Shown: piece by piece, positions 2,858-61,085 of the stretch
Position numbering within the stretch: the first letter of the stretch is position 1
Layout of the letters: every line of letters starts with the position of its first letter
From: Lepidostoma basale
Lineage: Eukaryota; Arthropoda; Insecta; Trichoptera; Lepidostomatidae
Reading direction: 5' to 3'
Assembly (NCBI GenBank): GCA_022606425.2
Contig: JAHDVF020000893.1
Coordinates: 1 to 64,000, forward strand
DNA length: 64,000 nucleotides
Notes under the pieces: model-generated
What the model was told of the DNA's origin: nothing
The model's input: only the letters and a program-made list of their open reading frames with translations
The model's database searches: none
Made by a program: the position numbers and the translations under genes

Positions 2858-2908
2858 TGTTTGTGTCTTCGACTGGTTTCGGCAGTTCGCTGCCATCTTC
2901 TGGTATAA
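2858..2908 (-). ncRNA. Hammerhead-like motif, family A
   Basis: On the minus strand the core reads CAGAAGA (U4 replaced by A), one U, stem II GGCAG/CUGCC with a CGAA loop, GAA, then ACCAGU, C and GAAGAC. Further 3' comes ACAAACATTAGTGG, shared by other family-A copies. The U4 change makes activity doubtful. Confidence 0.55.
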
Positions 2909-3299
2909 TTATAATATATTAATAGAACTTACCAGAATTATAATATAACAGAATTAGAACAGAATTATAATATAACATAATCAAATGATTGAACTGAAAT
3001 CTCTTGATGGAAGTCCATATTAAATAGTATTAAATAAAACGATGTTTTTTTAACTATTTGATTAATGGGCTAAGATATATAACATATTATATTTAAATTC
3101 AATAATAATAAAAACAAGTGTACCAATTTTTCTAACGTTATATATACATAGGTATGTCCACTATAATAAAATTTATAATCTTGAATATCTCTTGAATAAC
3201 TGTAATACCAATATTTAAATTCACAAAATTTTACAAAATTATTTTAAGATTATTTTTGTATAGAATCATGTTTACCACCCTGATCTGTATGTATATAAA

Positions 3300-3400
3300 T
3301 GACTCAGTTTGCAATAGTGTCACCAGTCTATCGACGAGAGCGAGCCTGGCGAAACCGGTCGCTGTCGAAATAAAGACAAAAGTGAAAGTAGTTAAAAAAC
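3300..3400 (+). repeat. GAAACCGGUC-bearing repeat fragment
   Basis: CGACGAGAGCGAGCCTGGC is followed by GAAACCGGTC. This resembles the 3' half of the hammerhead-like cores seen elsewhere, but stem II is weak and C3/U4 are not recognisable. Confidence 0.35.
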
Positions 3401-3420
3401 ATCGTTTTATTTAATTAAAT

Positions 3421-3600
3421 TAATACGAATGAAAACGTCAGTTTTCTAGAAGTTTTATTAAATTTTAATGACATTTTTCGTCCTTCTTTCGCCGAAACAT
3501 GTCATTCCCATAAAATATAATAAAACTTCTAGAAAACTGACGTTTTCATTAATAATATGGATTAATTATTTAATATGGAGTTTTACATCATTGTTCATGA
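3421..3600. repeat. Family-I foldback element
   Basis: The arms GAAAACGTCAGTTTTCTAG and its complement face each other and enclose CGCCGAAACATGTCATTCCC on the plus side. The 3' end reads AATATGGAGTTTTACATCA, as in other copies. It is inserted in a stretch rich in ATCGTTTTATTTAATTA, which is found on both flanks. Confidence 0.75.
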
Positions 3601-3654
3601 ATAATAAAAAATCGTTTTATTTAATTATGATATAACAGAATTATAAGAAAACCA

Positions 3655-3735
3655 GAAAACAGATGGTTCAGATAACCAGAAGATGGCAGCGAGCTGCCGA
3701 AACCGGCCGAAGACACAAACATTAGTGGATTGTAA
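3655..3735 (+). ncRNA. Hammerhead-like motif, family A
   Basis: CAGAAGA, one U, stem II GGCAG/CUGCC with a CGAG loop, GAA, ACCGGC, C and GAAGACACAAACATTAGTGG. Position 4 is A instead of U, and the stem III palindrome has decayed (GGC for GGU). Confidence 0.55.
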
Positions 3736-3769
3736 CTGTTATACTGAATAAATTATTACAGTTAAAATT

Positions 3770-3965
3770 TATAACACTGTTATAATATCATAATTTATTT
3801 TTATTCACCGAGAATATCGCTACAGCTGTTTCGCCAACCGATGTTGGCATCATCAGGTTTTTTGTAACGCCTGATGATGTCAACATCGGTTGGCGAAATA
3901 GCTATTGCGACATTCTCGGTGAATAAAAAAAAATTGCGATATTATAACGGTGTTATAAATTTTAA
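3770..3965. ncRNA. Family-B inverted pair with two hammerhead-like cores
   Basis: Two arms face head to head. The minus core (3812..3857) has CUGAUGA, one U, stem II GCCAAC/GUUGGC with loop AUCG, GAA, ACAGCUGU and A. The plus core (3866..3911) has CUGAUGA, one U, GUCAAC/GUUGGC, GAA, AUAGCUAU and U, with a CGC/GCG stem I. Both are flanked by CACCGAGAATRTCG complements and AT-rich arms ending near TTATAACACTG. Confidence 0.75.
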
Positions 3966-4465
3966 TAGTAATAATGTTGAAGTATCATAGAGTTTCGGCC
4001 AAAACAATGGAATAATCTCAAAAAGATTTTTTACAATTTTTTTTTTAATGTTGAGTTATTTTGTATAATGGATGATGAATGTTTGCTGCCGAAACAGGTC
4101 AGAGTGATCGATTCAGACAATAACAAATATTTTATCCTCTCCACATTTAATAACTTCAAAGCAAGTATCGCCTGTGTGTATAGGCATAGGTATAATAGAA
4201 CAAAATATGAAGATTCCTAGAATTCGAGATAGTCAATTCACAAGTCTAGAGTTGTTTCAATATCAAATCAAAAGGATCAAAATGCAGCCGTGACTCGCCA
4301 GTAGAGGTGAGCGCGCGAGTGTTTGCTCGGCTGTACAGGAGTTGGGTGACGGATAAAAAACAAGCACTCCGAACGACAATATTTGGCCGCATAACTTATT
4401 ACAATATTTAAAACATACCATTCGAAATAAGTATTATAGCAAATTACATTTTGGTGTAGCCAACC
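3966..4465. other. AT-rich intronic sequence, no gene seen
   Basis: I recognise no family here apart from the edge of the family-B arm. No intact reading frame, RNA gene or TIR pair is evident. Confidence 0.5.
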
Positions 4466-4860
4466 CATGACCGACAGGGTATTTCTAAATTCACGTTGCT
4501 TTTCAAAATGCGGAGATTGTATTCAATTATCGGACTTAAATTTACTGCCTTACGGAGGTTCAGCTCTTGGGGCTAATTCTTTTACGTCTGATGGGAAAAT
4601 TCTTGGGAAGATAGTTTGGTGTCAAAATACCTATGTATTCAATTATGCTTTGCATAGTTTTTGCAGAGAGTTCGCTTATCTCGGTACGGTCATGACGGAA
4701 GCCAACGATATGCACGCGGAGTTAGAACACAGTATATATAAGGTTCCCACCACCACCCGAGACTGTTATAGGACGCAGCGACGCCCTTTCGTCAGTCTCG
4801 CTGCACTATCTAGGCCCGTTCCTTGTCCATCCGGGACTTACGTTAATTTAATTTAGCCTT
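4466..4860 (+). pseudogene. Possible LINE remnant
   Basis: An open frame of 129 codons includes FAYLGTVMTEANDMHAELEHSI, which resembles the Y-LG segment downstream of the reverse transcriptase fingers in RTE-type LINEs. The rest is not recognisable. I treat it as a decayed fragment rather than a gene. Confidence 0.35.
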
Positions 4861-7667: not shown

Positions 7668-7815
7668 ATCCTAAACGTCTGTTTTATAGAAGTTTTATTA
7701 GATTTTACGTGAACGACATTTGATAATGCCTTAAACAGGCGAAACATATCATTCACATAAAATATAATAAATCTTTCACAAAACATAAGTTTTTATTCGT
7801 ATTAATTAAATAATT
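7668..7815. repeat. Family-I foldback element
   Basis: Left arm AACGTCTGTTTTATAGAAG; centre TTGATAATGCCTTAAACAGG then CGAAACATATC; right arm with ATAAAATATAATAAA and TTTTTATTCGTATTAATTA. Confidence 0.7.
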
Positions 7816-8039
7816 TTGTTCACAACTTTCATTCACCCTGAATCCCCTGCTTATATTTGCTATCATATACAGATTAATGGCACATTCGTCAAAGAGATCT
7901 CATTGTGCATACTAGCTATTACATATAAGAATAAAACTCTTCAATATTTAGAAAATCAATATTGTTAATTGAAATTTCTTGGTAGAGGTTCAATGTAAAT
8001 ATTGTAACAAAAAAAACTCTCTGATCAATGACATATTTA

Positions 8040-8105
8040 GTTTTCATCCACTTGTTCATAAATTTCGACCGGTTTCGCAGCTCGCTGCCATCTTCTGAAA
8101 TTCAG
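8040..8105 (-). ncRNA. Hammerhead-like motif, family A
   Basis: On the minus strand: CAGAAGA, one U, stem II GCAG/CUGC with loop CGAG, GAA, ACCGGU, C, then GAAAUUU, which can pair with AAUUUC upstream of the core. Position 4 is A, not U. Confidence 0.55.
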
Positions 8106-8615
8106 ATCTACCATCATCCAACGGTTGAAACTAAAGAATAAGCGAAATAAAACTAATGACATTTTACAAATAAAATTCAGTAATATATTATTTTCATTAT
8201 TTTATTCAATATTTGATAATAAATGAACACATCAAATATGGTAAAAATCTATATACGCCTTTATGAAATACAAACACGACGAGTTGCCACTTGAAGTATT
8301 GTAGTTTTACATTGAAATAATTTACCAGAATACACAATAGGAAAGAATAAAATAAACACAATTGAATTAACATGCGCACACGAGACTTACCACCGCGGTA
8401 GTGTCAATTTATAAATGTCTGCGTGTGTGAACATTTTAATATTTCGATTTGTTTTGTTAAAGAAATATTGTTGGATGTTGTAAGAGGGGTGAACGCCTGA
8501 TTGTATACAATATTCAGAACATCAAGCTCACAAGCGCGACTTTCCTCAAAACATTCTATTATCATATAATAAAATGAATTACTGTTTTTAAAGCACACAG
8601 CAAACTAAATAACTT
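8106..8615. other. AT-rich intronic sequence, no gene seen
   Basis: No repeat family recognised. Two short frames overlap on the minus strand with no homology I can name. Confidence 0.45.
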
Positions 8616-9954: not shown

Positions 9955-10125
9955 AAATATAACTAACTAACTAACTAACTAACCATCACGCCGTCTCCCC
10001 GAAGGGGTAGGCAGAAAGAATGGACTGCCACACCTTTCTTTCCTGACATATTTCTCTCGCTTCCTCAACATTCATACATCGTGTCATGCACGCGCGTCGA
10101 TTTCTCTGACTCCTCACATATAATG
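9955..10125 (-). mobile_element. RTE-type LINE 3' end with (CTAA)n
   Basis: Five CTAA units, then CCATCACGCCGTCTCCCCGA and GGACTGCCACAC. Stops after about 160 bp, a strongly 5'-truncated insertion. Confidence 0.85.
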
Positions 10126-10249
10126 TGATGTAAAATAGCAAAAAGGAATTGGAAAACGACACACTGTGAAAATTTGCAATATATATTAATATAATAATAG
10201 TACACTTTTAAAATTTGTATTATATTTAAACCACTTTATTCTTTACAAA

Positions 10250-10289
10250 AACCAACCGGTTTCGCTCCCACCGGAGCTTCGTCAGGGTT
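10250..10289 (-). ncRNA. Hammerhead ribozyme-like motif, all core positions present
   Basis: On the minus strand: stem I AACC pairing with GGUU; core CUGACGA; one unpaired A; stem II GCUCC/GGAGC with loop GGUG; GAA; palindromic stem III ACCGGU; cleavage base U. Beyond an internal loop, CUUU and AAAG can extend stem I. C3, U4, G5, A6, G8, A9, G12, A13 and A14 are all as in active hammerheads. The extra A before stem II is unusual. It is in sense with SLC25A17. Confidence 0.75.
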
Positions 10290-10374
10290 ACAAAAAGACA
10301 CTAAACATAAAATCAGAGAACAACACAATATATAAATAAGAAATATTAAATAAAGGGGAGAAAGAGGGGTAGGA

Positions 10375-10465
10375 AATGTTGGCATCAGGTGTTACAAACA
10401 ACAGTTAGTTGTTAGTCGTAACACCTGATGGTGCCAATATAGATTGGCGAAACAGCTGTCGCGAC
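10375..10465 (+). ncRNA. Hammerhead-like motif, family B
   Basis: CUGAUGG (A9 replaced by G), one U, stem II GCCAAU/AUUGGC with loop AUAG, GAA, ACAGCUGU, C, then GCGAC, which pairs with GUCGU upstream. A remnant of the opposite arm (GGCATCAGGTGTTAC) lies just left, so this was an inverted pair. Confidence 0.6.
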
Positions 10466-10769
10466 AATTTCATAGAAATGAATAATTAATATGTGATACG
10501 CATTGTAAGTGTTTCAAAATTAAAACAGTCAAAAATATGATTTGTAAAATCGGTGTATAAAAATAAACGTCGAGAGATGCCTAAGAAATAATGAATAAAA
10601 TTTATTGTGTCTTAAATAATGATGTTAACTCTTCTTCTTCTTCTTATACTGGTTGAAGGCCGCTGGGGCCTGTTTGTGGAGAGTTTACGGCTTCTTGCTT
10701 GCTCCTTCTTCCCTCTGGTTTCCCATGTAAGGCAAGGTGTGGTAGTCTTTGGGCGTCCATTCTTTCCAA

Positions 10770-11544: not shown

Positions 11545-11705
11545 GGGAGATGCCTATTGATGACGATGAGGTTCGCAACCCATCACGCCGCGTCTCGCGC
11601 GGGGCGAAAAGAGGAGGATGGAATGCCGCATCGGTTTAAGTGTGACAGTCCATTCTTTCTGCCTACCCTTTCGGGGAGACGGCGTGATGGTTAGTAACTA
11701 ACAAG
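11545..11705 (+). mobile_element. Non-autonomous element with RTE 3' end (module S2)
   Basis: It holds GGGAGATGCCTATTG, GAGGTTCGCAACCCATCACG and GTGCCGCATCGG-like segments, then joins exactly the RTE 3' end (CAGTCCATTCTTTCTGCC onward) with TTAG units. Related copies: 47655..47995 and 52305..52450 (minus), and 56160..56490 (plus). Confidence 0.75.
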
Positions 11706-12689: not shown

Positions 12690-12880
12690 GAAGAACCGTG
12701 TAACTCGTTTTTCTGGACATACGTTTCGGAGATCATTTCAGTATCCATCTTCATGATGGTTTTGTTATAGACAGACTTATATAGAGATAACTACCCCGAA
12801 GATGCAGAATGCAACGATCTCCGAAACGTCCATCTAGAAAGACGAGATCCAAAAAAACATACTGCTACCAACCGAGAAAT
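12690..12880. repeat. Family-C inverted pair with GAAACGUC cores
   Basis: The minus arm carries GATCTCCGAAACGTATGTCC and the plus arm CGATCTCCGAAACGTCCATC, each preceded by GAAGATG. Both ends show GGGATCTTGG / GAGATCC-type arms with poly-T/poly-A. Stem II is not convincing, so I call this hammerhead-derived only by analogy. Confidence 0.55.
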
Positions 12881-14347: not shown

Positions 14348-14575
14348 TGAACTAACTAACTAACTAACTAACCATCACGCCGTCTCCCCGAAGGGGTAGG
14401 CAGAAAGAATGGACTGCCACACTTTTCTTTCCTGACATATTTCTCTCGCTTCCTCAACATTCATACATCGTGTCATGCACGCGCGTCAATTTCTCTGACT
14501 CCTCACATAACCGACATTCAATATTTGATTTATTTGATCGTGCCACGTTTTCCTCGGTCTTCCTCTATATATTTC
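14348..14575 (-). mobile_element. RTE-type LINE 3' end with (CTAA)n
   Basis: (CTAA)n, then CCATCACGCCGTCTCCCCGA, then the complement of the blocks coding for RACMTRCMN and RKTWHDQI. Nearly identical to 9955..10125 over the shared part, so comparatively young. Confidence 0.85.
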
Positions 14576-16509: not shown

Positions 16510-16605
16510 CACTTTTCACAAACATGTTTCAGTACGCAGACACAGGTTAAAATTTCAACACTGATGAAGGGCGTCTGTGTCCCGAAACAAATTTGTGAAA
16601 AGTTT
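16510..16605. ncRNA. Family-E inverted pair, hammerhead-like
   Basis: The plus core (16554..16602): stem I UUUC(A)ACA with UGUGAAA, CUGAUGA, one A, stem II based on GGG/CCC, GAA, then a decayed stem III ACAAAU. The minus arm (16510..16548) keeps GAAACATGTTTGTGAAA but has lost the CUGANGA side. Confidence 0.6.
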
Positions 16606-16734
16606 TTTATGCTTCTCTTTTAAATTTTTATAATGTAATTGCAAACGATCTGGAATTATATGTCTGTACTGTTTGTAATTTTTATTAAAATAAATGAAGA
16701 AAATGAAATGAATGTAAAAACCGCAAGAAGAACA

Positions 16735-17744: not shown

Positions 17745-17915
17745 GAACTGTTTAAATAAAAACACTGTTATTTCTATAGCCTATATCAGTTGATTGTAGC
17801 ACCTGATGATGCTAACATCGGTTAGCGAAACAGCTTTCGCGACAATTTCAGAAGAAATATTATCAATTGTGATTATTCTATAACAGTGTTCTAATTAAAC
17901 AGTTAATTTCTTAAT
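17745..17915 (+). ncRNA. Hammerhead-like motif, family B
   Basis: Core at 17797..17845: CUGAUGA, one U, stem II GCUAAC/GUUAGC with loop AUCG, GAA, a decayed palindrome ACAGCUUU, C, GCGACAAUUUC. The flanks AACACTGTTAT and ATAACAGTGTT are complementary ends of the foldback. Confidence 0.65.
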
Positions 17916-21214: not shown

Positions 21215-21332
21215 CACGTGAATTCTACACCAGACCAATGTGACAATCACACTGCCATCGCCGGGAATCGAACCCGGGACCTTCGGTATGGAAGTCAGAG
21301 CTCTTACCACTCTGCCACGAAGGTCGTCATCT
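21215..21332 (-). mobile_element. tRNA-derived SINE head
   Basis: On the minus strand: box A in GTGGCAGAGTGGTAAGAGCT, perfect box B GGTTCGATTCC, then GTGTGATTGTCACATTGGTC and GTGTAGAATTCACGTGA. One of the best-preserved heads. Confidence 0.9.
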
Positions 21333-23722: not shown

Positions 23723-24054
23723 CAAAAACAACAAAAAAGTCCGTATGCAGTTTAGTTCTATATCACAAATAGAACGAAATTACAAACTTTTTTTGTACTT
23801 AGTGCTTATTTTACTTCAACCATTCAATTACGTGACGAAATACTTTTCGGTAAAAATCTCGAAATAAATGCGATTCAAAGGTTAATTAACAGAGTTTCGT
23901 AATATTTCAATAGAAATGGCGCAGGAAATACATTATTTGAAGTGTTTCGACCTAGGCCCACTGATTAGTCCAGCTTTATAGCGCACATCAAACTCCGGAC
24001 TGGGTCCGAGATTGCCCTTGCCCTTGACATAGAACGGTAGGAAGGTGTCTTCTG
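23723..24054. other. Intronic sequence, no element recognised
   Basis: Nothing assignable. Confidence 0.4.
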
Positions 24055-24125
24055 ATGACATCCCATAAGATGGCAACGAGCTGTCGAAACCGGTCAAAGA
24101 CACAAACATTAGTGAATTTAACTAA
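24055..24125 (+). ncRNA. Hammerhead-like motif, family A, decayed
   Basis: CAUAAGA, one U, stem II GGCA(A)/UGUC, GAA, ACCGGU, C, AAAGACACAAACATTAGTG. The CUGANGA side has decayed. Confidence 0.45.
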
Positions 24126-24179
24126 ATATGCATTTAAAAAAAGTAAATCTAGTACTGTATGATTTGCAGAGACTATCAC

Positions 24180-24456
24180 AGCACATTAATAAAGGTTTTC
24201 TGCCTAATGCTTTCCAAATTTAATAGATGACGCTAGTGTAGAGTGAACTTAAAAATGTAAATATAGGCGTGGAATCCTACCATATATACAAGTTCCAAAA
24301 ATTTGTCAGCCGTAGTGGTCGTAAGAAGGGCGGAATGGGGAATGTTGTTAAACATAAAGCGATCGCTCAACCCAACCAATGACAGGTCATAAGTCCTGTC
24401 ACCTTCTGTTCCCAGAAAACAATTTACATCTTCGTCTCTATTGAGATACAATTAAT
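24180..24456 (-). repeat. Repeat family R, long copy
   Basis: On the minus strand it starts ATTGTATCTCAATAGAGACG, continues through GACCTGTCATTGGTTGGG and AGCGATCGCTTTATG, and ends near TCACTCTACACTAGCGTCAT. No protein homology. Confidence 0.65.
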
Positions 24457-24509
24457 CCATATAAAATAAAAAAGTTTTTTCACATTTTTATTTTCATAAA
24501 ACTAAAAAA

Positions 24510-25140
24510 AAATAACTAACCATCACGCCGTCTTCCCGGAGGGGTAGGCAGAAAGAATGGAACGCCACACTGTTCTGTCCTGACATACTTCTCTCGATTC
24601 CTCTACATTCATACATCTTGTCATGCACGCACGTCAATTTCTCCGACTCCTCACGCGACCAACATTTAATACTTGATTGATTTGATCGTGCCACGTTTTC
24701 CTTGACCTTCCTCTTTCTCTAGCTCCATTCATGCTGTTTACATATACCTTCTTTACCATTTTGTCTTCACTCATTATTTCCATGTGTCCAAACCATCTTA
24801 ATGACCCTTTCATTATTTTGTTCATAACACTTTCATTCACACCACATTCACTTCTTATACTTGCATTTGACACTCTATCATACACAGATTTGGCACACAT
24901 TCGTCTTAGAGATCTTATTTCTACTGCATTTATTCTACTTTCATCCTTCTTTTGCCAGTTCCATGCTTCGCTTCCATACATAAGGGTCGGCACAAGAACA
25001 CCATTATGCACGGCCATCTTAGCTTTTTTGGTTTGTTTTTTGTTTGCGATGACAACTTTAAGTGCACCATTTACTCTGTTGCCTGCCCCAACCCTTCTTT
25101 CAATATCCTTCTCCACCCTCCCATCCTTTGTAAACATACT
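24510..25140 (-). mobile_element. RTE-type LINE, longest open copy
   Basis: The frame 24634..25137 (minus, 167 codons) reads ERRVGAGNRVNGALKVV, MAVHNGVLVPTLMYGSEAWN, RRMCAKSVYDRVSN, GSLRWFGHMEIM and RKTWHDQINQVLNVG. One frameshift later the sequence gives RRACMTRCMNVEESREVCQD and SAYPSGKTA, then the conserved 3' end and CTAA units. This is the C-terminal third of the protein; polymerase motifs are absent. Confidence 0.88.
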
Positions 25141-25154
25141 TAAATAAACAAAAC

Positions 25155-25692
25155 TAACTAACTAACCATCACGCCATTTCACGGGAGGGGTAGGCAGAGA
25201 TGATGGATCGCCACAATGCTCTGTCCTGGCATACCTCTCGGGCTCCCTCTACATTCATACATTGTACCATGCACGCACGTCGATTATTCCGACTTCGAAT
25301 GTGACCGCCTTTTAGTAATTGATTAATTTGGTCATGTCATGTTTTCCTCGGTCGTCCTCGGCTTCTTTTTCCACTCACGCTGCTTGTTTACACCTTTTCA
25401 ACCATTCTACTCTCATCCATTCGTTCTATATGTCCAAACCATCTCAGGGATCCTTTATTAATTTTATCCATGATGCAGTCATCTGCCTTACATTTCTTTC
25501 TAATTTCATCGTTCGGTATTCTATCATACAACGTTTTCCCGCAAATTTTTCTTAGTGATCTCATTTCTATGGCGTTTATCCTGCTTTCATCCTTCTTTTG
25601 CCAGCTCCAAGCTTCACTTCCACACATGAGGGTTGGCACTAGAACACCATTGTGTACTGCCATCTTTGCTTCTGTGGATATATTTCTAAATA
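25155..25692 (-). mobile_element. RTE-type LINE, subfamily B
   Basis: (CTAA)n and the 3' end, then the minus frame 25388..25663 (MAVHNGVLVPTLMCGSEAWS, KTLYDRIPNDEIRKKC, GSLRWFGHIERMDESRM). Lies 15 bp from, and in the same direction as, the preceding copy of a different subfamily. Confidence 0.85.
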
Positions 25693-26234
25693 AACAAATT
25701 CATACAAATAAACATCTCTGTAAAACCGACCAAACAATCTCTTTTACATTATAAATTATTCTAACTCAATTATGGGATGTCCACATTGCCATTTGTCATG
25801 GACAGTGTTGAGATTATATAAGTGGAATAAATCGATATTTGGTAATTTGTAAAACGAAGGAAGTTGTGATGTACAATATTACTTGGAGTTCTTAATAGTA
25901 AAATAATGTCATGGCCTGTCATCTATGTACGTTTCAATGTCATCTGTGTGACCGCTAATGATCAGAGTGGACAGTTAAGAAGAGCCCATTTTTCATTATC
26001 AGCCTCGGTCAGGTTAGAGTTCAGACCGCCGCGTTCTGCGACCATTACTCCAGGAAGTTCGGAGACCTTTCTTCCCGAATTCTAAAGACGGAAATGCTAG
26101 TCGTGACCGGCGTGGCGTAGCTGACTAATGTATTTTAAAACAAACTATGTGCGGCACAAAGGCGAGCAATGTTCTAACTGAAGTCTCGAGAAGTCCATCT
26201 TGAAATATATAATATAGGAATAAAATATATTTTT
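25693..26234. other. Intronic sequence, no element recognised
   Basis: Slightly GC-richer at 25970..26120. Nothing assignable. Confidence 0.4.
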
Positions 26235-26645
26235 TACAAGATTTTGAATGTACTCGTATACAAATTCTTGTAGACAAATACTGGATTTTACCCATTGCGG
26301 ATAAATTATTTTTTTATAGGGATTAATTGTATCTCAATAGAGACGAAGGTGTAAATTGTTTTCTGGGAACAGAATATGGTGACCGAGGCGCTTATGACCT
26401 GTCATTGGTTGGGTTGAGCGATCGCTTTATGTTTAACAACATTTCCCATTCCTCCCTTCTTACGACCACCACGTCTGACAATTTTTTTTGGAAGTTGTAT
26501 ATATGCTAGAATGCTGCGCCTATCTTCACATTTTTAAGTTCACTCTACACTAGCGTCATCTATTAAAATTGGGAAGCATTAAGCAGAAAATCTGTATTAA
26601 TGCACTGTGAAAGGCTCTGCAAATCATACAGTACTAGATTACGCC
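26235..26645 (+). repeat. Repeat family R, longest copy
   Basis: Begins TTTTACAAGATTTTGAATGT, then ATACTGGATTTTACCCATTG, ATTGTATCTCAATAGAGACG, GACCTGTCATTGGTTGGG and TCACTCTACACTAGCGTCAT. A second 5' part follows at 26690..26825, so the first 130 bp are duplicated in direct orientation. Confidence 0.7.
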
Positions 26646-26689
26646 TGGAGATGTCTCCCCAATTTTTATGTCATTAACTTGGACCAGTT

Positions 26690-26825
26690 ATTTTACACAA
26701 CATTTTGAATGTATACAAATTCTTGTAGACAAATACTGGATTTTACCCATTGCGGATAAATTATTTTTTATAAGGATTAATTGTATCTCAATAGAGACGA
26801 AGATGTAAATTGTTTTTATATTTTT
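26690..26825 (+). repeat. Repeat family R, 5' part
   Basis: Repeats the first about 130 bp of 26235..26645, then stops at AATTGTTTTTAT. Confidence 0.7.
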
Positions 26826-26837
26826 TAGATAAACTTA

Positions 26838-27085
26838 AGGCGTTAACACTTTGGAATTCCATAATAACGCATTTTTTATGGATTAAAACACTGTTTTTTC
26901 CACTTTTGAATTTATTTTCCTCGACATGTTTCGAAGGCTTACACATTCATCATCAACTACATAAGCTGTTTATGTAGTAAAATTCTTAGTTTATATCGTT
27001 CTCCCGATTGTGAAGGTGCCTTCGAAACATGTCGAGAGTATAATATAAACTTAAAAGTGGAAAAAACAGTGCTTTAATTCATAAA
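26838..27085. ncRNA. Family-F inverted pair with GAAACAUGUC cores
   Basis: The minus arm reads GCCUUC, GAA, ACAUGU, C, GAGGAAAA. The plus arm reads UUCUC, CCGAUUG, one U, GAAGG/CCUUC, GAA, ACAUGU, C, GAGAG, so stem I is UUCUC/GAGAG. U4 is C across this family. Outer arms carry AAAACACTGTTTTTTCCACTT complements. Confidence 0.6.
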
Positions 27086-27149
27086 AAAATTAACAAAATA
27101 TTATTTACTTTTTCTTGAACAAAGAAGTCAAACTCTATATTATCAATTA

Positions 27150-27345
27150 TTAATTCGAATGAAAATGTCTGTTTTATAGCAGTTTTATTAAATTTTATGG
27201 GAATGAAATGTTTTGCTTTTCTAGGGGATTATCAAATGACATTTGATATAATGCCTTAGCAAGACAAAACATGCCATTCCCATAAAATATAATAATACAT
27301 ATAGAAAACAGACGTTTTCAATCGTTTAATGAATAAAATATTTTC
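27150..27345. repeat. Family-I foldback element, full pair
   Basis: Arms AAAATGTCTGTTTTATAG and AAACAGACGTTTTCA; the centre holds ATTTGATATAATGCCTTAGC and the decayed CAAAACATGCC. About 190 bp. Confidence 0.75.
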
Positions 27346-29639: not shown

Positions 29640-30029
29640 AATATTTTCGATAAAAGGTGGAGTTTCGCAGTTAAAGCCGACGATATTCTGGTTAGGAACT
29701 TGAAGGCGATTATTTAAGATGGAATAACCTGTTTTATATAAAAGAATAAACTTCTATGGAAATTAAGGAAGGTTAAGAACCTCAGACATGTATTTCAAGA
29801 TTGATTGAATGTTTTCACAACTTCTCCTTTGTAATAGCCAGAGGTCAACGAGTTCACCGATCAGATTTCATAATTTTAATTATATCCAATTGTATCGATT
29901 ATGAATATCATATAATAAAGCGTTTAAAGGTGATCAATATTAAAATCATTTTTAAAACATCAAATTAATTTAATTTAATAAAATCTGAAAAATCAAAACG
30001 GTAGAAGTAACAAATAAACAATATAACAT
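29640..30029. other. Intronic sequence, no element recognised
   Basis: AT-rich. Nothing assignable. Confidence 0.45.
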
Positions 30030-30245
30030 GTTTGATAAACTAAAGGTGTTTGCAAAGTGGAATTCTATAATAACGATTTATATAATAATTAAAACACTGT
30101 GTTTTCCATTTTAAAGTTTATTTTTCTCGAAAGTTTCGAACGTGTAAAACTTTTTAAAAATGCCGTGAAAAATAAACTCCAATGGTGTAAAAAAACTGTG
30201 TTTTTCCACAGTGTTAACGCCGTAAATTTAATAAAAATTGTTTTA
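30030..30245. repeat. Family-F foldback, decayed
   Basis: Outer arms AAACACTGTGTTTTCCATTT and its complement; the central TTTCTCGAAAGTTTCGAACG keeps only part of the GAAAC side. Confidence 0.5.
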
Positions 30246-30867: not shown

Positions 30868-31495
30868 AAAAGATATCGAGGTTGTAGGGCAGCCAAGTGG
30901 ATTTCCAGCGACTTGCTGGGCCTTCTCTCCCGACACGCCCGCAGAGAATGACACCAACAGTCTCCCGGAGTGCCGACACCAACAGGCTCGCGCCGAGCCC
31001 AGCGTCCTCTCTCCCGACCTCCTGTCCTGGACCGGCTCCACCAAGTTCCAGAACTACGCAAGGAGCCCTGGATACGGCCCGGAGCCGAGCCCTTCCGGGA
31101 ACTTCGATTTCGTCACGCGTAGAAGGCACCAGGAAACGACTTTCTAAGATCCCCGAGCGTCTGAAAGCTTTCGAGAGCGTAACAGCATATGTCGGATCTC
31201 CAGAATACCGCCCTGTTTCATCGGACCTCGATGAAAGATCGCCCGATCATCCGAAGTCTTCCGATAATTCCGAGAGTTTGGCCATTCAGCGTCGGCTGAA
31301 CTTGGAGTCGCCGTCAGACACTCCGCTGTCTCCGGAGACCAATCCGTTTATGAAAGTAACAGTTCAGTGTTTCCTAAAACCTTTAAAGAGCTTCCTCACT
31401 AGGCGCAGAATTACGGAAAATCTAAAAATTCTTCCAAGCGTACGATCCGAAGCCAGATTCTCTGAGAAACAGGGCATTCGCGAATTACAATGATT
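30868..31495 (+). pseudogene. GC-rich coding-like island of unknown origin
   Basis: A 198-codon open frame (30897..31493) overlaps a second frame (30851..31147). The second frame looks more natural over its part (SLPECRHQQARAEPSVLSPD, DLLSWTGSTKFQNYARSPGY, GNFDFVTRRRHQ). The first looks more natural after about 31140 (KIPERLKAFESVTAYVGSPE, RRLNLESPSDTPLSPETNPF). This suggests one Ser/Pro-rich reading frame broken by a frameshift near 31140. GC content is far above the flanks. No family recognised. It could be a captured or retrocopied gene fragment, or an exon of a nested plus-strand gene. It is not a carrier exon. It ends beside the family-G palindrome. Confidence 0.4.
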
Positions 31496-31692
31496 AAATT
31501 GTAAATAAAACACTTGTTTTTTACCACTTCAGTATTATATTTTACACGACTAGTTTCGGAAGCTACAGATGCTTCCATCTACAGTTTATATTGAAACCTG
31601 TAGATGGAAGCATCTGTAGCTTCCGAAACTAGTCGTGTAAAATATAATCAAGTGGTAAAAAACAAATGTTTTATTTACAATTTAATCATGTC
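31488..31692. ncRNA. Family-G near-perfect palindrome with hammerhead-like cores
   Basis: About 200 bp fold back with few mismatches from AATGATTAAATTGTAAATAA to its complement. Each arm has CUGUAGA (A6 replaced by U), one U, stem II GGAAGC/GCUUCC, GAA, ACUAGU, C, GUGUAAAAUAU. The arms are so alike that the pair must be young or maintained. Confidence 0.65.
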
Positions 31693-32554: not shown

Positions 32555-32975
32555 CAATTGAAACACTGTCAATTTTTCTCGACATGTTTCGAAGGTTTTA
32601 CACTTTCATCACCGAGAGAACGATATCGATCTGTTTATTATTATTATTTTGTTGAATCGCTCTTTGCATCATTACAGCGCGAGCCAAATCGATGTAAGCG
32701 ATATAGCTATCATAGTGATTCTCGTGACATGTGATAGGAAACTAATCTATCGCCATTTTATTGTCTCGTGAATTCTTCACCAAACCGAAGACAGTGTGAC
32801 AATCACCGGGAATAGAACCCGGGGACCTTTGGTGTGGCGTTCAAATCACTTACGACTCGGTCAAGAAGGTCTTTAATGATCGTTTATATCGTTCTACCGA
32901 CGATGAAGGTGTTAAACCTTCAAAACCTTCGAAACTTCCGAGAAAAAACACTTTAAAATATGAATTATTTCAATA
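32555..32975. ncRNA. Family-F inverted pair split by a SINE
   Basis: The minus arm (32570..32635) has UUCUC, UCGGUGA, UGAAAGU, ACCUUC, GAA, ACAUGU, C, GAGAAAAA. The plus arm (32885..32960) has the matching CGACGATGAAGGTG and CCTTCGAAAC. A complete SINE separates them. Confidence 0.65.
32636..32882 (-). mobile_element. tRNA-derived SINE, near full length
   Basis: (TAA)n tail at left, GAGCCAAATCGATGTAAGCG, TGACATGTGATAGGAAAC, then a head with a partly deleted B-box region. GATCTGTTTA and GATCGTTTA at its two sides look like the target duplication. Confidence 0.85.
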
Positions 32976-34085: not shown

Positions 34086-34189
34086 CTAATTCAACAATCT
34101 ATTCGCTCTCCCTACCAGCATCCCCAAATATAAGTTGGCTCTGCATACCGTCTCATAAAACATCCGAGATTAAATCAGAAATATTATAT

Positions 34190-37680: not shown

Positions 37681-37734
37681 ACTTTTTTTTTTAGATAAAC
37701 CATCGTTTTGGCGGAAACGCTTTGATATTTCAAC

Positions 37735-37955
37735 ATTATTAATTGTTTAAATGAAAACACCGTTATGGAATATTACAATTTATCTTATTTCTTTCGAAAT
37801 TTTCGCTCATTTTCACTCAATCAATCACTGATTGTAAGACCTGACGATGCTAACATCGGTTAGCGAAAGAGCTGTCGCGACAATTTCGAAAGAAATATAA
37901 TCAATTGTGATATTCTATAACAGTGTTTTTATTAAAACAGTAAATCTGTTTTGTT
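37735..37955 (+). ncRNA. Hammerhead-like motif, family B
   Basis: Core 37835..37883: CUGACGA, one U, stem II GCUAAC/GUUAGC with loop AUCG, GAA, AGAGCUGU, C, GCGACAAUUUC. All catalytic-core bases present. The stem III palindrome is off by one base. A remnant arm on the left (TTCTTTCGAAATTTTCGC) shows that this was an inverted pair. Confidence 0.7.
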
Positions 37956-40390: not shown

Positions 40391-40974
40391 CTCCCTAGAG
40401 TGAAATTTTGAGGGCTTTTTTTCTACAAATTGACTGGCTATTGCGCTTTATTACTTTGACTATGGACGACTCTTAGGGGGTACTACAATCCTATCTCGTA
40501 GTCCATTTTCCATGTCGTGCCCTCCTCTTGATAGAGAAACTATATTCGACATAGATTAAAAGTTGAAAATATAATACAGTTCTACCACATTCGACCAGAA
40601 GTATTATAATAACATCACTTGAGAAGAACTTATTAAGTGTGCAAGAATAAATTAATGAAAGGAACCCATTATATCCTGGAGGGGAATACGAGTGCGTGTG
40701 GAGTGCCGTGTTTGCTCAGTCCGTGGCGCATGCGACATTTTTGCATTTTGTAAGAATCGACATTTTTATGAGCGACGTGTCGAGAATGTCCGCCACGGCG
40801 ATGTTTGCTCCCGACAATAAGATGTTTGGACTGGGACAAAAAATGCAATAAAACATTATGTGAACAATGCTATATGAACCGGTTGAATTGTGTTCATAAT
40901 GAAATGGCACAAGTACCTGTATGCAGCAAAGCAAAGGACACGCGCAAAATGGGGATCAGAAATTTAGACTAAGT
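40391..40974. other. Intronic sequence, no element recognised
   Basis: Nothing assignable. Confidence 0.4.
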
Positions 40975-41165
40975 TTAATATTGAGGAAAACGTCAGTTTT
41001 TAATATTTTTTATTCTATTTTATAAGTGCGAAGTGTTTCGGGTTGCTATGGTTTTATCAGATATAGCAAATGCTCTAAGAAACATATCACTCCTATAAAA
41101 TAAAATAAAAACTTCTAGACAAAGGACGTTTTCATTAGTATTAATTATTTAATATTAAGTTATAC
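40975..41165. repeat. Family-I foldback element, diverged pair
   Basis: Arms GAAAACGTCAGTTTTTAATA and GACGTTTTCATTAGTATTAA; the centre is decayed. Confidence 0.6.
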
Positions 41166-41345
41166 ATTTTACTTTTTCCAGTTTCTAGATTATTTTTCTC
41201 GACATGTTTCGAAGGTTTTTTTTTTAACTTCAAACTGAGTTTATATAGTTCTCCCGATGAAGAAACTATCAAAACTTCGAAACATGTCGAAAAAAAATTA
41301 AAAAAAATGGAAATAAGTGTTTAAATAAAATAAAAATTAAAAACG
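41166..41345. ncRNA. Family-F inverted pair
   Basis: Minus arm TTTTTCTCGACATGTTTCGA; plus arm UUCUC, CCGAUGA, AGAAACUAUCAAAACUUC, GAA, ACAUGU, C, GAAAAAA. Stem II decayed; U4 is C. Confidence 0.55.
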
Positions 41346-47134: not shown

Positions 47135-47305
47135 CATTTGGTATAAATCACTTTGAGTTAGCAGCGCCAACCGGTTTCACTGCTGCATTGAGCTTCCTTA
47201 GACTATACACAAACTAAACTGAGTTTAGTTTGTGTATAGCTCTAAGGAAGTTCGTTACAGAGTGAAACCGGTCGGCGCTACTTACTCAAATAATGTGGTT
47301 TTACT
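47135..47305. ncRNA. Family-H inverted pair
   Basis: The plus arm: CUAAGGA (G5 replaced by A), one A, a weak stem II, GAA, ACCGGU, C, GGCGCUAC. The minus arm is the mirror, with GAAACCGGTTGGCGCTGC. The centre is CAAACTAAACTGAGTTTAGTTTG, a 23-bp palindrome at 47211..47233. Confidence 0.55.
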
Positions 47306-47309
47306 AAAT

Positions 47310-47612
47310 AACTAACTAACCATCACGCCATCTCTCAGAAGGGGTAGACAGAAAGAATGGACAACCACACTTTTCTTTCCTGACATAATTTTCTAGCTTT
47401 CTTAACATTCATACATCGTGTCATACACGCACGTTTCTCAGACTCCTCACGTAGCCGACATTCAATATTTGATTTATTTGATTTTTTACCATTCTTACTT
47501 CATTCATTATTTCCATGTGTCCAAACCATCTTAATGAATCTTTCATTATTTTGTTCATAACACTTTTATTCGCACCGCATTCACTTCTTATTTTTATAAT
47601 CATTCGACATTG
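47310..47612 (-). mobile_element. RTE-type LINE 3' fragment
   Basis: (CTAA)n and 3' end; the minus frame 47421..47603 keeps RSECGANKSVMNKIMKDSLR and WFGHMEIM. About 120 bp deleted between the GRPRK and DQI blocks. Confidence 0.75.
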
Positions 47613-54290: not shown

Positions 54291-54394
54291 TTACTATTTA
54301 AAATTAATATCCATCAAAGTCATTAGATTATCTTAAAAACATAATTAGATCATACCATAAATAATGAAAACAATAATAATATTGATACAAAATT

Positions 54395-54555
54395 TCTTTA
54401 TTATTATATATTTAGTGTGCTTCCACTTATGTTTAACGACGACCGGTTTCGGCAGCTTGCAGTAGTCTTGCAACCGGTCGACGTTAAAAACAAGTGGAAG
54501 CACACTTAATATATAATAATAAAGAAATTTTGTATAATTTTTTTTTTGTTTTCAT
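54395..54555. ncRNA. Family-A palindrome
   Basis: Arms from ACAAAATTTCTTTATTATTA to its complement, about 70 bp each and nearly perfect. The minus side keeps GCTGCCGAAACCGGTCGTCG; the plus side only GCAACCGGTCGACGTT. The centre lost the CUGANGA part. Confidence 0.6.
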
Positions 54556-54599
54556 TATTTAAAATGAACTTCTACCAAGAAATTTCTATTAAAAATATT

Positions 54600-54785
54600 A
54601 ATTATTTGATCATACCGTGTTTTCTTCGACTCCGTTCTTCTTTCAGATCGTTAACGTATACTTTATTAACCATTATTATTTCTTCACCCATGCGTTTCTT
54701 ATGTACAAACCAAAGCGGTGACCTCTTACATACTTCAAATATGTTAGAATCTCTCAAAATTGTGAGAATACCAACACTTTTCAAT
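54600..54785 (-). mobile_element. RTE-type LINE fragment, old
   Basis: The complement reads MGEEIIMVNKVYVNDLKEER and SRRKHGMIK. No 3' end. Confidence 0.6.
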
Positions 54786-55009
54786 TCACTAATTTACAAC
54801 GATATTTTATTCCAATTTCTTTGCAATCCCTATTTTATTGATACTATCAATTATAGCATAAAAATTAATTAACATTTCAAATGAGAACCACTTATTCATA
54901 TTCAGTTTACACCTGGAAATTTTTAAAACTCGGAAGCGACGCATGTCCTTACGAATAATAAAAACGCTGTCGGGAATTATAACATAAATTATTCATTTCT
55001 CTTTCTCTT
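54786..55009. other. AT-rich intronic sequence
   Basis: Nothing assignable. Confidence 0.4.
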
Positions 55010-55350
55010 TTTATACTTTGTATATACAACACTTATATTAAAAAAATAAAATTACATAGACATGTTTCGGACAACCAGTCCTTCTTCAGTGATACATATT
55101 TAAAATTGTTTACATGATCTGACAGATATTATAAAGATTTATTTTTGAACGTTTATAAACGTTTATGAACGTTCCAAAATAAATCTTTTTAACATCTGTC
55201 AGATCATGTAAACAATTTTATAATATTTTAGATATATACAATGTATCTTTATAATATGTATCAATGAAGAGGGACTGGTTGTCCCAAACACGTCTATGTA
55301 AATTTTTTTAAATATAAGCGTTGTATATACAAAGTACATAAAAAAGACAA
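55010..55350. ncRNA. Family-D inverted pair, long palindrome
   Basis: The minus core (about 55055..55097): CUGAAGA, one A, stem II GGAC/GUCC with loop UGGUU, GAA, ACAUGU, C, an intact core. The plus core has decayed (AUGAAGA, GGGACUGGUUGUCCC, AAACACGUC). Outer arms TTTGTATATACAAC and its complement extend the foldback to about 330 bp. Same family as 13064..13109. Confidence 0.7.
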
Positions 55351-55429
55351 AGAGAAATAAACCATCATAACAACACAAAGTATGGTGAATATAGAAGAGA
55401 TATATTATTCAATTAAAAATACCCATAAA

Positions 55430-55845
55430 TACTCGTCAACTTGAAAAGGATATTATTCAACGCCTATGTTCTGCCATTGTTCACGTATAGTGTTGAGACA
55501 GTCACAATGTCACAAAAAAAGTGCCAACAAGCTGAGAATAACACAGAGAGCCATGTTGGGCATTAGCTTGTGGGACAGAGTCAGGAATGAGGACATACAA
55601 GCCAGGACTAGTCTCCGATGTCATCAAGTTGGCCGCAACCCTTAAGTGGCCTTGGGCGGAACACTTCGCTCGTGACCCAGAAGAAAAATGGACAAGGCGA
55701 CTGGTATGCTGGTGCCCGAGTGGTGGTTAGGCGCGTAAAGGGCGGAAGTGACTGAAATGCGGATGGCTCAGGATAGAAGGGAGTGGAAAATACGAGAGGA
55801 AGCCTACGTCCAGGAGTTAACGTTCACAACAAGCTGAATAAAAAT
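55430..55845 (+). mobile_element. RTE-RT LINE C-terminal remnant
   Basis: LKRILFNAYVLPLFTYSVET, AMLGISLWDRVRNEDIQA, LAATLKWPWAEHFARDPEEK. Frameshifted relative of 34670..35095. Confidence 0.75.
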
Positions 55846-56490: not shown

Positions 56491-56868
56491 AGCATTTGTT
56501 ATTCATTTAATGCCAAAATATAGTAGGAAGTGACAGGTTAATAGATTCGACAAGGCAACAAGTAGCGACTCGATAAATCAATAAACCAATCACCCATTAT
56601 TGTGGTATCTGATACACTGGTGCGAACACAATGCCTTTTAAATTACTATAGTTATGAATAAATTAAAGATAAATCGGACGTATAAATAACGAAACATGTC
56701 GAATCATGGGGTGATAACGATACTTGGATGAAAATCACGCTGTTGATTATACAAAACATCCAACGATTACATGTGCGGATACCAGATAATACGACAAACA
56801 CATCTTTAGTGCAAAGACTTCGATAACAAAAATTCCAAATAAATAAAAATAAAAAACATATATTTATA
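56491..56868. other. AT-rich intronic sequence
   Basis: Nothing assignable. Confidence 0.4.
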
Positions 56869-57410
56869 CATGATTTAATTGTATCTCAATAGAGACGAAG
56901 ATGCAAATTGGAAACTGAATATGGTTGATCAAGGTGTTTACAGGACTTATGACCTGTCATTGGTTGGGTTAAGCGTACGCTTTATGTAATTACAACATTC
57001 CCCATTCCACCTTTTTCTTTATGACTATGTAAGACAAATTTTTGGAAGTTGTATATATGTTACAAATCTATGCCTAATTTCACATGTCACTTTCAATGTG
57101 CCATCTATGAAGATTTTGATTACATATGTTAATCTTTTTAAGATTACTCTATATAATCCACATACTAATGCCATTTATGGAGATTAATTTTAGCATTTAG
57201 CAGAATCGTCGTTTTAGCATTTAACAGAAGCATCCAACAGCCAACCAATGACAGGTCATAAGTCCTGTAAACACCTTGATCAACTATATTCAGTTTCCAA
57301 TTTGCATCTTCGTCTCTATTGAGATACAATTAAATCATGAATTAATAACCCACGGTGGGTGAAATCCAGTATTCGTGTACAAGTATCAGTATACATTCAC
57401 AAAAAATATA
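56869..57410. repeat. Family-R inverted dimer with 101-bp arms
   Basis: Arms 56869..56969 and 57240..57340 differ at one position. They start CATGATTTAATTGTATCTCA and run inward to CCTGTCATTGGTTGG. About 270 bp of family-R sequence lies between. The right arm continues to 57410 with the family's GTGAAATCCAGTATTCGTG segment. Confidence 0.8.
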
Positions 57411-59439: not shown

Positions 59440-59610
59440 TGAATCTTCCTCGTCAACTATCCAGAAGAAGACCTAGGAAAACGTGGATGATTCAGTGCAA
59501 TAGTGTCTTGCAGAGAAATGGCTTGAATGAAGGCAATACTCCGCACCGTGCGAGGGTTGGGATAGTGCCAGGAAGAAGAAGAAAGAAGATCATAAATAGA
59601 CTTAAGTAAT
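59440..59610 (+). mobile_element. LINE 3' end, unassigned
   Basis: SRRRPRKTWMIQCNSVLQRN, then ARVGIVPGRRRK, and (GAA)n. Confidence 0.5.
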
Positions 59611-59618
59611 GTAAAAAC

Positions 59619-59880
59619 ATATCGCACGTTGAAAACAAAAGTGACACTATACAAAAATCTCAATTTTTCAGTACGGTCATTTAAAGTTTTTGTGAGGTCA
59701 ATAACTTGACTGTGAGTAGAAATATATCTAATGTTGTTGTTTTATCTATTAGTTTAGATATTATTCTATCAGAATTTAGTTGATTTTAATTAGGTTAATA
59801 AGCAGGCAAAACTTTAAATGACCGTACTGAAAAATTGAGATTTTTGTATAGTGTCACTTTTGTTTTCAACGTGCGATATT
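59619..59880. mobile_element. Short element with 70-bp terminal inverted repeats
   Basis: ATATCGCACGTTGAAAACAA to TTTAAAGTTTT on the left mirrors the right end almost perfectly. 262 bp, about 120 bp of unique centre, no coding. The near-identity of the arms suggests recent origin. Confidence 0.8.
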
Positions 59881-60104
59881 ATAATATTTGGTATAACTAT
59901 TATGTGAGAATTAAAATTTAAAAATAAAAATAAAATTCTCTATAAAACTGTAAAACTACACGAATATTATGTTCCTAAATATGATACTATAATACAACTT
60001 ACATGTTTATATTGGTTGGTACTTCTTGTTACAGTTAAAACTTTATTATTTCATAAATGAAAACTCAACAGATTAGATATATAAAGATTATAACTTCAGA
60101 TTAT

Positions 60105-60172
60105 AACTTCCATTCTTTCTGCCTACCCCACCGGGGAGACGGCGTGATGGTTAGTTAGTTAGTTAGTTAGTT
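60105..60172 (+). mobile_element. RTE 3' end only, with (TTAG)n
   Basis: CCATTCTTTCTGCCTACCCC to five TTAG units. About 60 bp, an extreme 5' truncation 130 bp from exon 2. Confidence 0.85.
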
Positions 60173-60302
60173 TTATAACTTATAATATAAAATGCAGATA
60201 GGGATTATCCAATATTAAAAGAATTGTATAATTACTTTCATTCACAACATTTCTGTTAATATCTCTTTGAAGAACCATAAATATTTTAAAACATTTACTC
60301 AC

Positions 60303-60363
60303 ATTGTAATCTACACCGAACTGTGTCCAGGGGATAGAATGTTGCCATTCCAACGACACTGCC
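60303..60363 (-). CDS. SLC25A17: SLC25A17/PMP34, coding exon 2
   Basis: 61 nt coding residues 22-41 plus the first base of codon 42: GSVVGMATFYPLDTVRCRLQ. The matching human PMP34 segment is [26 protein letters not shown] is the first carrier signature P-x-D-x-x-R; its Asp and Arg form the matrix gate. The acceptor ends ATTACAG and the donor is T|GTGAGT. Too short for a reading-frame search and found only by homology. Exon 1 ends on a codon boundary, so the frame is fixed. Confidence 0.93.
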
Positions 60364-60412
60364 CTGTAATAAAATAAAACATTAGTAAAAGATCACATTA
60401 ATAAATACAATT

Positions 60413-60868
60413 GACTAACCATCACGCCGTCTCCCCAAAGGGGTAGACAAAAAAATGGACTGCCACACTGTTCTTTTCTGACTTACTTCTCTAGCTTCGT
60501 CAATATTTATACATCATGTAACGCACTCAAGTCCATTTTTCTGACTCCTTAAATGGCCAACATTTAAAATTTGATTTATTTGATCAGGCTACATTTTCTT
60601 CGGTCTTCCTCTATTTGTTGTTCCGTTTACATTGTTAACATATACTTTCATCAAACATCTTAATGACCTTTTCATTATTATATTCATAACACTTCCATTT
60701 ATACATTCACATAAACATACATTCCATCATATGCATTCACATCAAATATTTGCTTTGACACCCTATCATAACAACAGATTCGTTTAAGAGATCCCATCTC
60801 TACTGCATCTATTTTACTTTCATCACTCTTTTGCCAGTTCCATGCTTCACTTCCATATCAACTTATAT
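60413..60868 (-). mobile_element. RTE-type LINE 3' part
   Basis: Complement of the 3' end with a single CTAA, then RACV-like, RKMxPDQI and GSEAWNW blocks. Old, many indels. Confidence 0.75.
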
Positions 60869-60894
60869 TGCAATGATATACAATTTTTTTTTTA

Positions 60895-61085
60895 AGATAA
60901 ACTTAAGGCATTAAACATTGTGAAATTCCATGAACTAAAACATTGTTTTTTTTCTACTTTTAACATCATCATCAGGAGAACGATATAAACTTCATACAGT
61001 TCTCCCAGTGATGAAGGTGTAAGCCTTCGAAATACGTCGAGAAAAATAAACTCAAAAGTGGAAAAACAGTGTTTTAAATCATAAA
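60895..61085. ncRNA. Family-F foldback, plus arm best kept
   Basis: Plus arm: GUUCUC, CCAGUGA, one U, stem II GAAGG/CCUUC with a UGUAAG loop, GAA, AUACGU, C, GAGAAAAA. Core C3 kept, others shifted. The flanks carry AAACATTGTTTTTTTTCTAC and AAAAGTGGAAAAACAGTGTT. Confidence 0.5.

What the first reader, a model, noticed from the sequence alone, without database searches (positions are those of the whole stretch)
2858..61085. About ten families of foldback repeats built on one hammerhead-like scaffold
Families A-I each show C-U-G-A-N-G-A or a derivative, one base, a hairpin, GAAA, a 4-8 base palindrome (ACAUGU, ACCGGU, ACAGCUGU, ACUAGU) and a cleavable base. About thirty cores are readable in 64 kb, most in head-to-head inverted pairs. 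Penelope-like elements carry hammerheads in their terminal repeats and often insert as inverted partial copies. A set this dense and varied with no visible Penelope ORF suggests a thriving non-autonomous (retrozyme-like) population. This is my best candidate for an under-described system.
Basis: partly seen in the sequence, partly recalled or inferred. Interest (0 to 1): 0.9.

Follow-up and report, generated by a model that had tools for sequence, protein, structure and literature searches.

The report
Penelope retroelement ends carrying hammerhead ribozymes
The foldback repeats are mostly short, head-to-head insertions of the ribozyme-bearing ends of Penelope-like retrotransposons, which are abundant in this animal genome, and their two ends appear to record where the element's enzyme began copying.

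Summary
The observation largely holds. Hammerhead-like cores are far above chance (14 with at most one core mismatch against 0.81 in shuffles). They share one extra base between CUGANGA and stem II, a covarying stem II and a short palindromic stem III; close neighbours are mostly head to head (13 of 19). The host genome is held (769 Mb). It gives 63 Penelope-like (PLE) reverse-transcriptase matches (a lower bound). Of 18 PLE loci whose flanks I fetched in part, 16 show the same inserted-base hammerhead nearby, C1386 and C258 both before and after the ORF. Window families C/F and D match PLE copies by profile, B and H by shared leader or core, J by eye; A, E and G have no partner yet. Copies of A, B, D and G end at one of two points about 45 nt apart, the longer (the known PLE 'tail') entering an ORF start. 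In 21 of 22 head-to-head pairs exactly one arm has the tail (0 of 20,000 permutations). So these are ORF-less PLE pseudo-LTR insertions, not retrozymes. Inverted pLTRs, tail and PLE hammerheads are in print; the density and the counted one-tail rule are the additions.

The parts
2709..3754 (.). family B inverted pair (cores 2861-2914 minus, 3665-3718 plus; core CAGAAGA); left arm with tail MNFYHEIS; a second, decayed B pair (2973-3056 minus, 3339-3417 plus) lies between them
3736..4033 (.). family A head-to-head unit, cores 3811-3868 minus and 3859-3916 plus; right arm with tail MLKYHRVSAKTM
7720..7770 (+). family H core TTGATAA with U3-A8 in place of C3-G8
7901..8109 (-). family B single copy with tail (a seed of the B profile)
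10213..10297 (-). family C core CTGACGA, found by a profile made only of C956 and C258 PLE copies (E 4.7e-6)
10413..10499 (+). family A single copy
12699..12851 (.). family J inverted unit, resembles by eye the hammerhead downstream of the PLE at C753
12907..13114 (-). family D copy with the best-formed core (CTGATGA, 7-bp stem I) and tail MVSIEE
16511..16611 (.). family D-like decayed inverted unit
17791..17905 (+). family A copy without tail
24052..24142 (+). family B copy
26792..27088 (.). family G head-to-head unit; left arm with tail MEFQSVNALSL
27137..27341 (.). family H inverted unit (decayed cores, assigned by eye)
30025..30204 (.). family G-like decayed unit; by eye both arms carry the tail (exception to the one-tail rule)
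31490..31689 (.). family E head-to-head unit, arms 92% alike, core CTGTAGA on both strands
32571..32627 (-). family G core
37692..37945 (.). family A head-to-head unit; left arm with tail, right arm with core CTGACGA and no tail
40960..41161 (.). family H-like inverted unit (decayed, assigned by eye)
41141..41340 (.). family G-like head-to-head unit
47159..47310 (.). family F head-to-head pair at the centre of a longer inverted repeat, found by the C956/C258 PLE profile (E 8.4e-6)
54358..54634 (.). family B head-to-head unit; right arm with tail MNFYQEIS; 9-bp direct repeat at both ends
54992..55437 (.). family D head-to-head unit (cores 55049-55101 minus, 55252-55304 plus); right arm with tail MVNIEEI; 8-bp direct repeat
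60993..61076 (+). family G single core

Best explanation
The repeats are short, ORF-less insertions made from the pseudo-LTR (pLTR) region of several Penelope-like retrotransposon (PLE) lineages. Each arm is a type I hammerhead variant with one inserted base, followed by about 80-100 nt of leader that ends either at a first point or about 45 nt further on, inside the first codons of an ORF (the tail). SHOWN: scaffold and covariation; the same scaffold beside PLE ORFs in the same genome; two groups of 3' ends; one arm with tail and one without in 21 of 22 classed head-to-head pairs; 8-9 bp direct repeats around 3 of 11 whole units. INFERRED: the PLE enzyme cuts both target strands and primes reverse transcription on each, one strand using the inner and the other the outer start site on the RNA; both cDNAs run to nearby 5' points upstream of the hammerhead and are joined head to head, leaving a foldback. 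The palindromic stem III suggests that cleavage, if any, works best in tandem (dimeric) transcripts.
For: Enrichment over shuffles (in an arbitrary 176-kb sample 17 perfect inserted-base cores against 0.10). Covariation on 15 cores spread over families and PLE groups: score 0.70 against 0.20, 0 of 500 shuffles, slid controls at most 0.18. 63 PLE RT matches in the host genome, many with open frames of 620-873 aa. Inserted-base hammerhead upstream, downstream and in a head-to-head copy at C1386; upstream and downstream at C258; at both outer ends at C956. The C853 ORF holds MANIEEIL at its start, as the family D tails seen earlier predict, and a family D hammerhead follows it. GIY-YIG (PF01541, E 5.5e-5) in a partial tandem copy at C308. 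Tail rule 21 of 22. Direct repeats of 8 bp or more at 3 of 11 units against 7 of 500 random placements. Core pair 3-8 is C-G (15) or U-A (7), with 2 A-G, 1 G-G and no C-A or U-G, in 270 kb; this swap is known in nature and active in vitro (PMC3088659, section 8 read).
Against: No ORF-bearing partner was found for families A, E and G. 2 of 18 PLE loci (C887, C219) show no core in the short stretches fetched. The profiles of B and D each hold one PLE-locus copy among four seeds, so those matches are partly built in. 8 of 11 units show no convincing direct repeat. One unit (30025-30204) by eye has tails on both arms. [quoted passage not shown] PMC3846280 prefers self-priming on an antisense template for the head-to-head form. 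In one search the number of pairs with changes on both sides (8) is reached by 192 of 500 shuffles. The U-A copies are mostly one lineage, so one event. Self-cleavage is untested, and several families have cores expected to be weak.
Confidence: 0.88

Rival explanations
1. Retrozyme-like non-autonomous elements that spread as unit-length circular RNAs between two tandem hammerheads.
For: Dense small hammerhead-bearing repeats without an ORF.
Against: Close neighbours are 13 head-to-head (11 within one family by eye), 3 convergent and 3 tandem, the tandems joining different families. 3' ends sit at tail positions that open an ORF start, shown to be the PLE ORF for D and C.
Confidence: 0.04
2. 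Foldback or MITE-type DNA transposons with long terminal inverted repeats.
For: Near-perfect inverted arms, e.g. 31490-31689; no ORF partner yet for A, E, G.
Against: Outer ends differ by a tail of about 45 nt on one arm only; direct repeats vary (8-9 bp or none); arms of other families are the ends of RT elements.
Confidence: 0.03
3. Same PLE origin, but the head-to-head form comes from self-priming (hairpin snap-back) on one strand and not from two primed ends. (A variant of the best explanation, not exclusive of its first half.)
For: Palindromes at the centre of units; proposed for rotifer PLEs in PMC3846280 (passages read).
Against: Snap-back does not by itself explain why the two outer ends use two different start sites in 21 of 22 pairs.
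Confidence: 0.3

Closest known systems
Penelope/Poseidon PLEs with tails (Anolis PAc, PMC11167929, main text read; Adineta vaga Pen2a, PMC3846280, passages read)
   Same: RT plus GIY-YIG ORF, pLTRs in tandem, inverted head-to-head pLTR, 30-40 or 31 bp tail at the ORF start, short TSD (Pen2a 9 bp); hammerhead at the pLTR/ORF junction (PAc)
   Different: Here most copies read are ORF-less units, several lineages coexist, and the density is about one core per 5.5 kb in the sample
Small PLE hammerhead variants that cleave as dimers (Lunse et al. 2017, not held; seen only as a citation)
   Same: hammerhead variants linked to PLEs; by its title they cleave as dimers
   Different: I could not read whether the insertion after A9 is described there; PMC10085705 (passages) says that insertions of one or two nucleotides next to the stems are the most known
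Natural hammerheads with U3-A8 (Perreault et al. 2011, PMC3088659, section 8 read)
   Same: C3-G8 covaries to U3-A8
   Different: Here it marks one PLE lineage and comes with the inserted base
Retrozymes (plant and metazoan; PMC7761336, passages)
   Same: non-coding hammerhead-bearing repeats
   Different: tandem units there, head-to-head pLTR units here

Membership tests
Penelope-like element (autonomous, host genome) | PLE-type reverse transcriptase ORF | tested here: met
   63 matches to a Papilio machaon PLE protein, best E 1.7e-171; 63 of 979 candidates scored
Penelope-like element (autonomous, host genome) | GIY-YIG endonuclease in the same element | tested here: met
   PF01541 E 5.5e-5 in a partial tandem copy at C308; no other copy was scanned
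Penelope-like element (autonomous, host genome) | pLTR with hammerhead repeated before and after the ORF | tested here: met
   C1386 and C258; elsewhere seen on one side or inverted, or the far side was not fetched; 16 of 18 loci show a core in some fetched stretch
PLE-derived unit (window repeats) | same pLTR/hammerhead as an ORF-bearing PLE | tested here: met
   families C/F and D by profile, B by leader and tail with one PLE copy among the profile's seeds, H by core and stem II, J by eye; no partner found for A, E, G
PLE-derived unit (window repeats) | optional tail on one inverted pLTR | tested here: met
   21 of 22 classed pairs in window plus sample and PLE flanks
PLE-derived unit (window repeats) | short target site duplication | tested here: inconclusive
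   3 of 11 units with 8 bp or more
Hammerhead ribozyme | CUGANGA/GAAA core, stems I and II, A-U closing stem III | tested here: met
   core intact in A, C, D and C1386/C956-type PLE copies, only in part in B, E, F, G
Hammerhead ribozyme | self-cleavage after H17 | not testable with these tools
   needs an RNA assay
Retrozyme | two hammerheads of one kind in direct tandem around a short unit | tested here: not met
   no same-family tandem within 400 bp among the 59 matches used, families assigned by eye
Retrozyme | unit-length circular RNA | not testable with these tools
   no RNA data
TIR DNA transposon / MITE | two equal ends | tested here: not met
   one arm longer by the tail in 21 of 22 pairs
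TIR DNA transposon / MITE | fixed-length TSD | tested here: inconclusive
   8-9 bp at 3 of 11 units, none convincing at 8

The most novel reading that the evidence does not exclude
PLE insertion is intrinsically asymmetric and two-sided: the enzyme primes one cut strand at the outer and the other at the inner start site of the RNA in nearly every event, so every head-to-head unit is a fossil of one double priming. Such genomes then hold a very large, datable record of a step so far seen in vitro. The hammerhead scaffold, kept in families whose catalytic core has drifted, may then serve as the protein's RNA landmark as much as a cutter.
Probability: 0.45. Interest if true: 0.65.

Novelty: new member of a known kind. 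Interest (0 to 1): 0.45.

Why it matters
Relatively little is known of how PLEs insert (PMC11167929). The one-tail rule turns a remark in print (a tail 'optionally present' at one of the inverted pLTRs, PMC3846280) into a counted, testable statement about how the two ends of an insertion are primed. The material is abundant: extrapolated from 32 matches in 176 kb, of the order of 100,000 hammerhead-like cores in the genome (rough, from an arbitrary sample).

Tried and rejected
Rfam search of the window and RF00008 in the genome (its controls also gave nothing, so it says nothing). Regex for PLE endonuclease motifs in window plus 206 kb: none. Pattern scans of viral and prokaryote contigs: no match; one loose pattern gave 24 viral-contig loci (L022-L045) that I did not analyse. 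ORF start at the AUG of CUGAUGA: the frame closes after 22 and 39 codons in the two family A arms at 3856 and 3871, rejected. Host identification by a jockey-type ORF: best hit unnamed (61%), best named ones spiders, moths and a bee at about 40%, so only 'arthropod-like'. A lepidopteran origin is a recollection about one repeat and is not shown.

Selections: the 25 window matches used are from the 36 and include one (47159, E 1.8) kept because it lies in an inverted unit, while 29322 (E 1) was left out; this favours head-to-head counts slightly. For the sample 34 of 43 matches were used (E<=0.027), 32 of them in L004-L021. Families were assigned by eye; 2 of the 13 head-to-head pairs join different families. 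Profile seeds were chosen as tail-bearing copies, and the end thresholds were set after seeing the ends. Two of 24 pairs could not be classed; the one two-tail pair (L062) has as its right member an internal pLTR of the C853 element, whose copy beyond the ORF (L063) has no tail; it is counted against the rule all the same. Unit boundaries were set by hand. Row 1 and row 2 of alignment A1 are one site twice; rests on it and is not used here. In alignment A4 families C/F and D appear three times each and B twice.
Full report
OBSERVATION. A scan for CUGANGA (at most one mismatch), one base, a stem of at least 4 bp and GAAA finds 14 cores in the window against a mean of 0.81 (maximum 4) in 100 shuffles; the classical form without the extra base is at background, 1 against 0.89. 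With stem I and a palindromic stem III also required, 3 perfect cores stand against 0.03 and 6 with at most one mismatch against 0.53. A covariance model from 15 window cores recovers those and 6 more at E<0.05. Rfam does not see them.

STRUCTURE. On 15 cores spread over families and PLE groups the covariation score of the three stems is 0.70 against 0.20 in shuffles (0 of 500) and at most 0.18 when slid; stem I is paired in 82% and stem II in 83% of cells, though the sixth stem II pair fails in 10 of 15 and the number of pairs changed on both sides (8) is no more than shuffles give (192 of 500 reach it). The window-only set agrees (0.57 against 0.18). The C3-G8 core pair occurs as C-G 15 times and U-A 7 times in 270 kb, with 2 A-G and 1 G-G but no C-A or U-G, and as C-G 14 and U-A 6 in the PLE flanks. 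The U-A copies are mostly one lineage. U3-A8 was reported in nature and active in vitro (PMC3088659, section 8 read). All 24 perfect CUGANGA cores that the descriptor found (7 in the window, 17 in the sample) have the inserted base. [quoted passage not shown] Stem III is ACNNGU-like and self-complementary, too short to close as a hairpin, which fits type I hammerheads that cleave as dimers (PMC7761336, passages; Lunse et al. not held).

UNITS. Many cores sit in palindromic units. Among 19 neighbour pairs within 400 bp in window plus sample, 13 are head-to-head (11 within one family by eye), 3 convergent and 3 tandem; the tandems join different families.

GENOME. The host assembly has 768.8 Mb. 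In 18 arbitrary stretches (176,460 bases) there are 17 perfect inserted-base cores against 0.10 in shuffles and 32 model matches, about one per 5.5 kb. The window, with about 21 per 64 kb of which 15 trained the model, is denser by under twofold.

AUTONOMOUS PARTNERS. A typed PLE probe retrieved PLE proteins; one of them, P0077 of Papilio machaon, matched 63 places in the host genome, best E 1.7e-171, many with open frames of 620-873 aa, several head to head or in mixed tandem and inverted arrays. I fetched parts of the flanks of 18 of these loci; 16 show an inserted-base core in some fetched stretch, 2 (C887, C219, 651 and 351 nt fetched) do not. At C1386 the core stands upstream and downstream of the ORF in the same direction, with an inverted copy head to head (model score modest, 20.3 bits, but a perfect core with 7-bp stem II). 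At C258 it stands upstream and downstream; at C956 at both outer ends, facing outward. At C853 the frame holds MANIEEIL at its start, as the tails of family D seen before predict, and a family D hammerhead follows. A profile of C956 and C258 copies alone finds window families C (E 4.7e-6) and F (E 8.4e-6). C236 and C742 carry a family B relative with tail MNFHQEIS; the C308 group carries the U3-A8 form of family H. GIY-YIG was confirmed in a partial tandem copy at C308. Families A, E and G have no ORF-bearing partner yet; the tails of A and G open related frames of the form M..[HQ]SV[NS]A.

TAIL RULE. In families A, B, D and G the 3' ends of copies fall in two groups about 45 nt apart. For C and D the longer end is shown to enter the PLE ORF; for A, B and G it opens a frame. 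Of 24 head-to-head pairs 22 could be classed; 12 had the tail on the left only, 9 on the right only, one on both; none of 20,000 permutations reached 21 mixed pairs. By eye the unit at 30025-30204, whose right arm the profile missed, is a true exception. PMC3846280 (passages read) describes, for rotifers, head-to-head inverted pLTRs, a 31-bp tail optionally present at one of the inverted pLTRs, and a pLTR that includes the first 12 codons (22 with tail). PMC11167929 (main text read) shows that a PLE protein cuts and extends both strands and starts copying at two adjacent sites whose interval is the tail; it sees no difference between strands in start site, needs no hammerhead cleavage for insertion in vitro, and finds its hammerhead active only with the protein. 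Direct repeats of 8-9 bp flank 3 of 11 whole units, against 7 of 500 random placements.

MECHANISM. The simplest account is a single insertion event with reverse transcription primed on both cut ends, one from each start site, and the two cDNAs joined near the hammerhead. The double priming and the joining are inferred. Self-priming on an antisense template, proposed in PMC3846280, remains possible for the centre of the units but does not by itself give two different outer ends.

VERDICT. Known kind of element, observation largely confirmed, sub-label (retrozyme) not supported. New here, as far as I can tell: the number of ORF-less head-to-head units, the inserted base in every perfect core found, and the counted one-tail rule. 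Paper searches behind that: (listings; only some of the papers listed were opened, and mostly by passages). Most subscription papers, Lunse et al. among them, are not held, so this is weak evidence of absence.

Noticed in passing
9978-10033, 11638-11695, 14367-14424, 36018-36077, 37619-37678 and several L loci: A dispersed repeat reading ACTAACCATCACGCCGTCTCCCCGAAGGGGTAGGCAGAAAGAATGG in both directions, in some cases next to the PLE units
   Followed up: no
758-1522 minus: Mitochondrial carrier (PF00153) exon next to an N/G/A-rich stretch encoded by an 18/54-bp tandem repeat
   Followed up: partly
59619-59879: 72-bp inverted repeat, 100% complementary, 117 nt apart, without a hammerhead model match
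   Followed up: no
56861-57347 and 24416-26816: Inverted repeats sharing a CATCTTCGTCTCTATTGAGATACAATTAA stretch, a separate foldback family
   Followed up: no
21253-21324 minus: tRNA-Gly(TCC)-like gene at low score (31.8 bits), possibly a tRNA-derived SINE head
   Followed up: no
28500-29567 plus, 34174-34737 plus: Reverse transcriptase ORFs (PF00078), the first jockey-like by its named relatives
   Followed up: partly
31490-31689 (family E); C236 PLE, L066 and L072: Core A6-to-U (CUGUAGA, CUGUCGA) in a nearly intact window unit and beside a PLE ORF: scaffold kept where catalysis is expected to be weak
   Followed up: no
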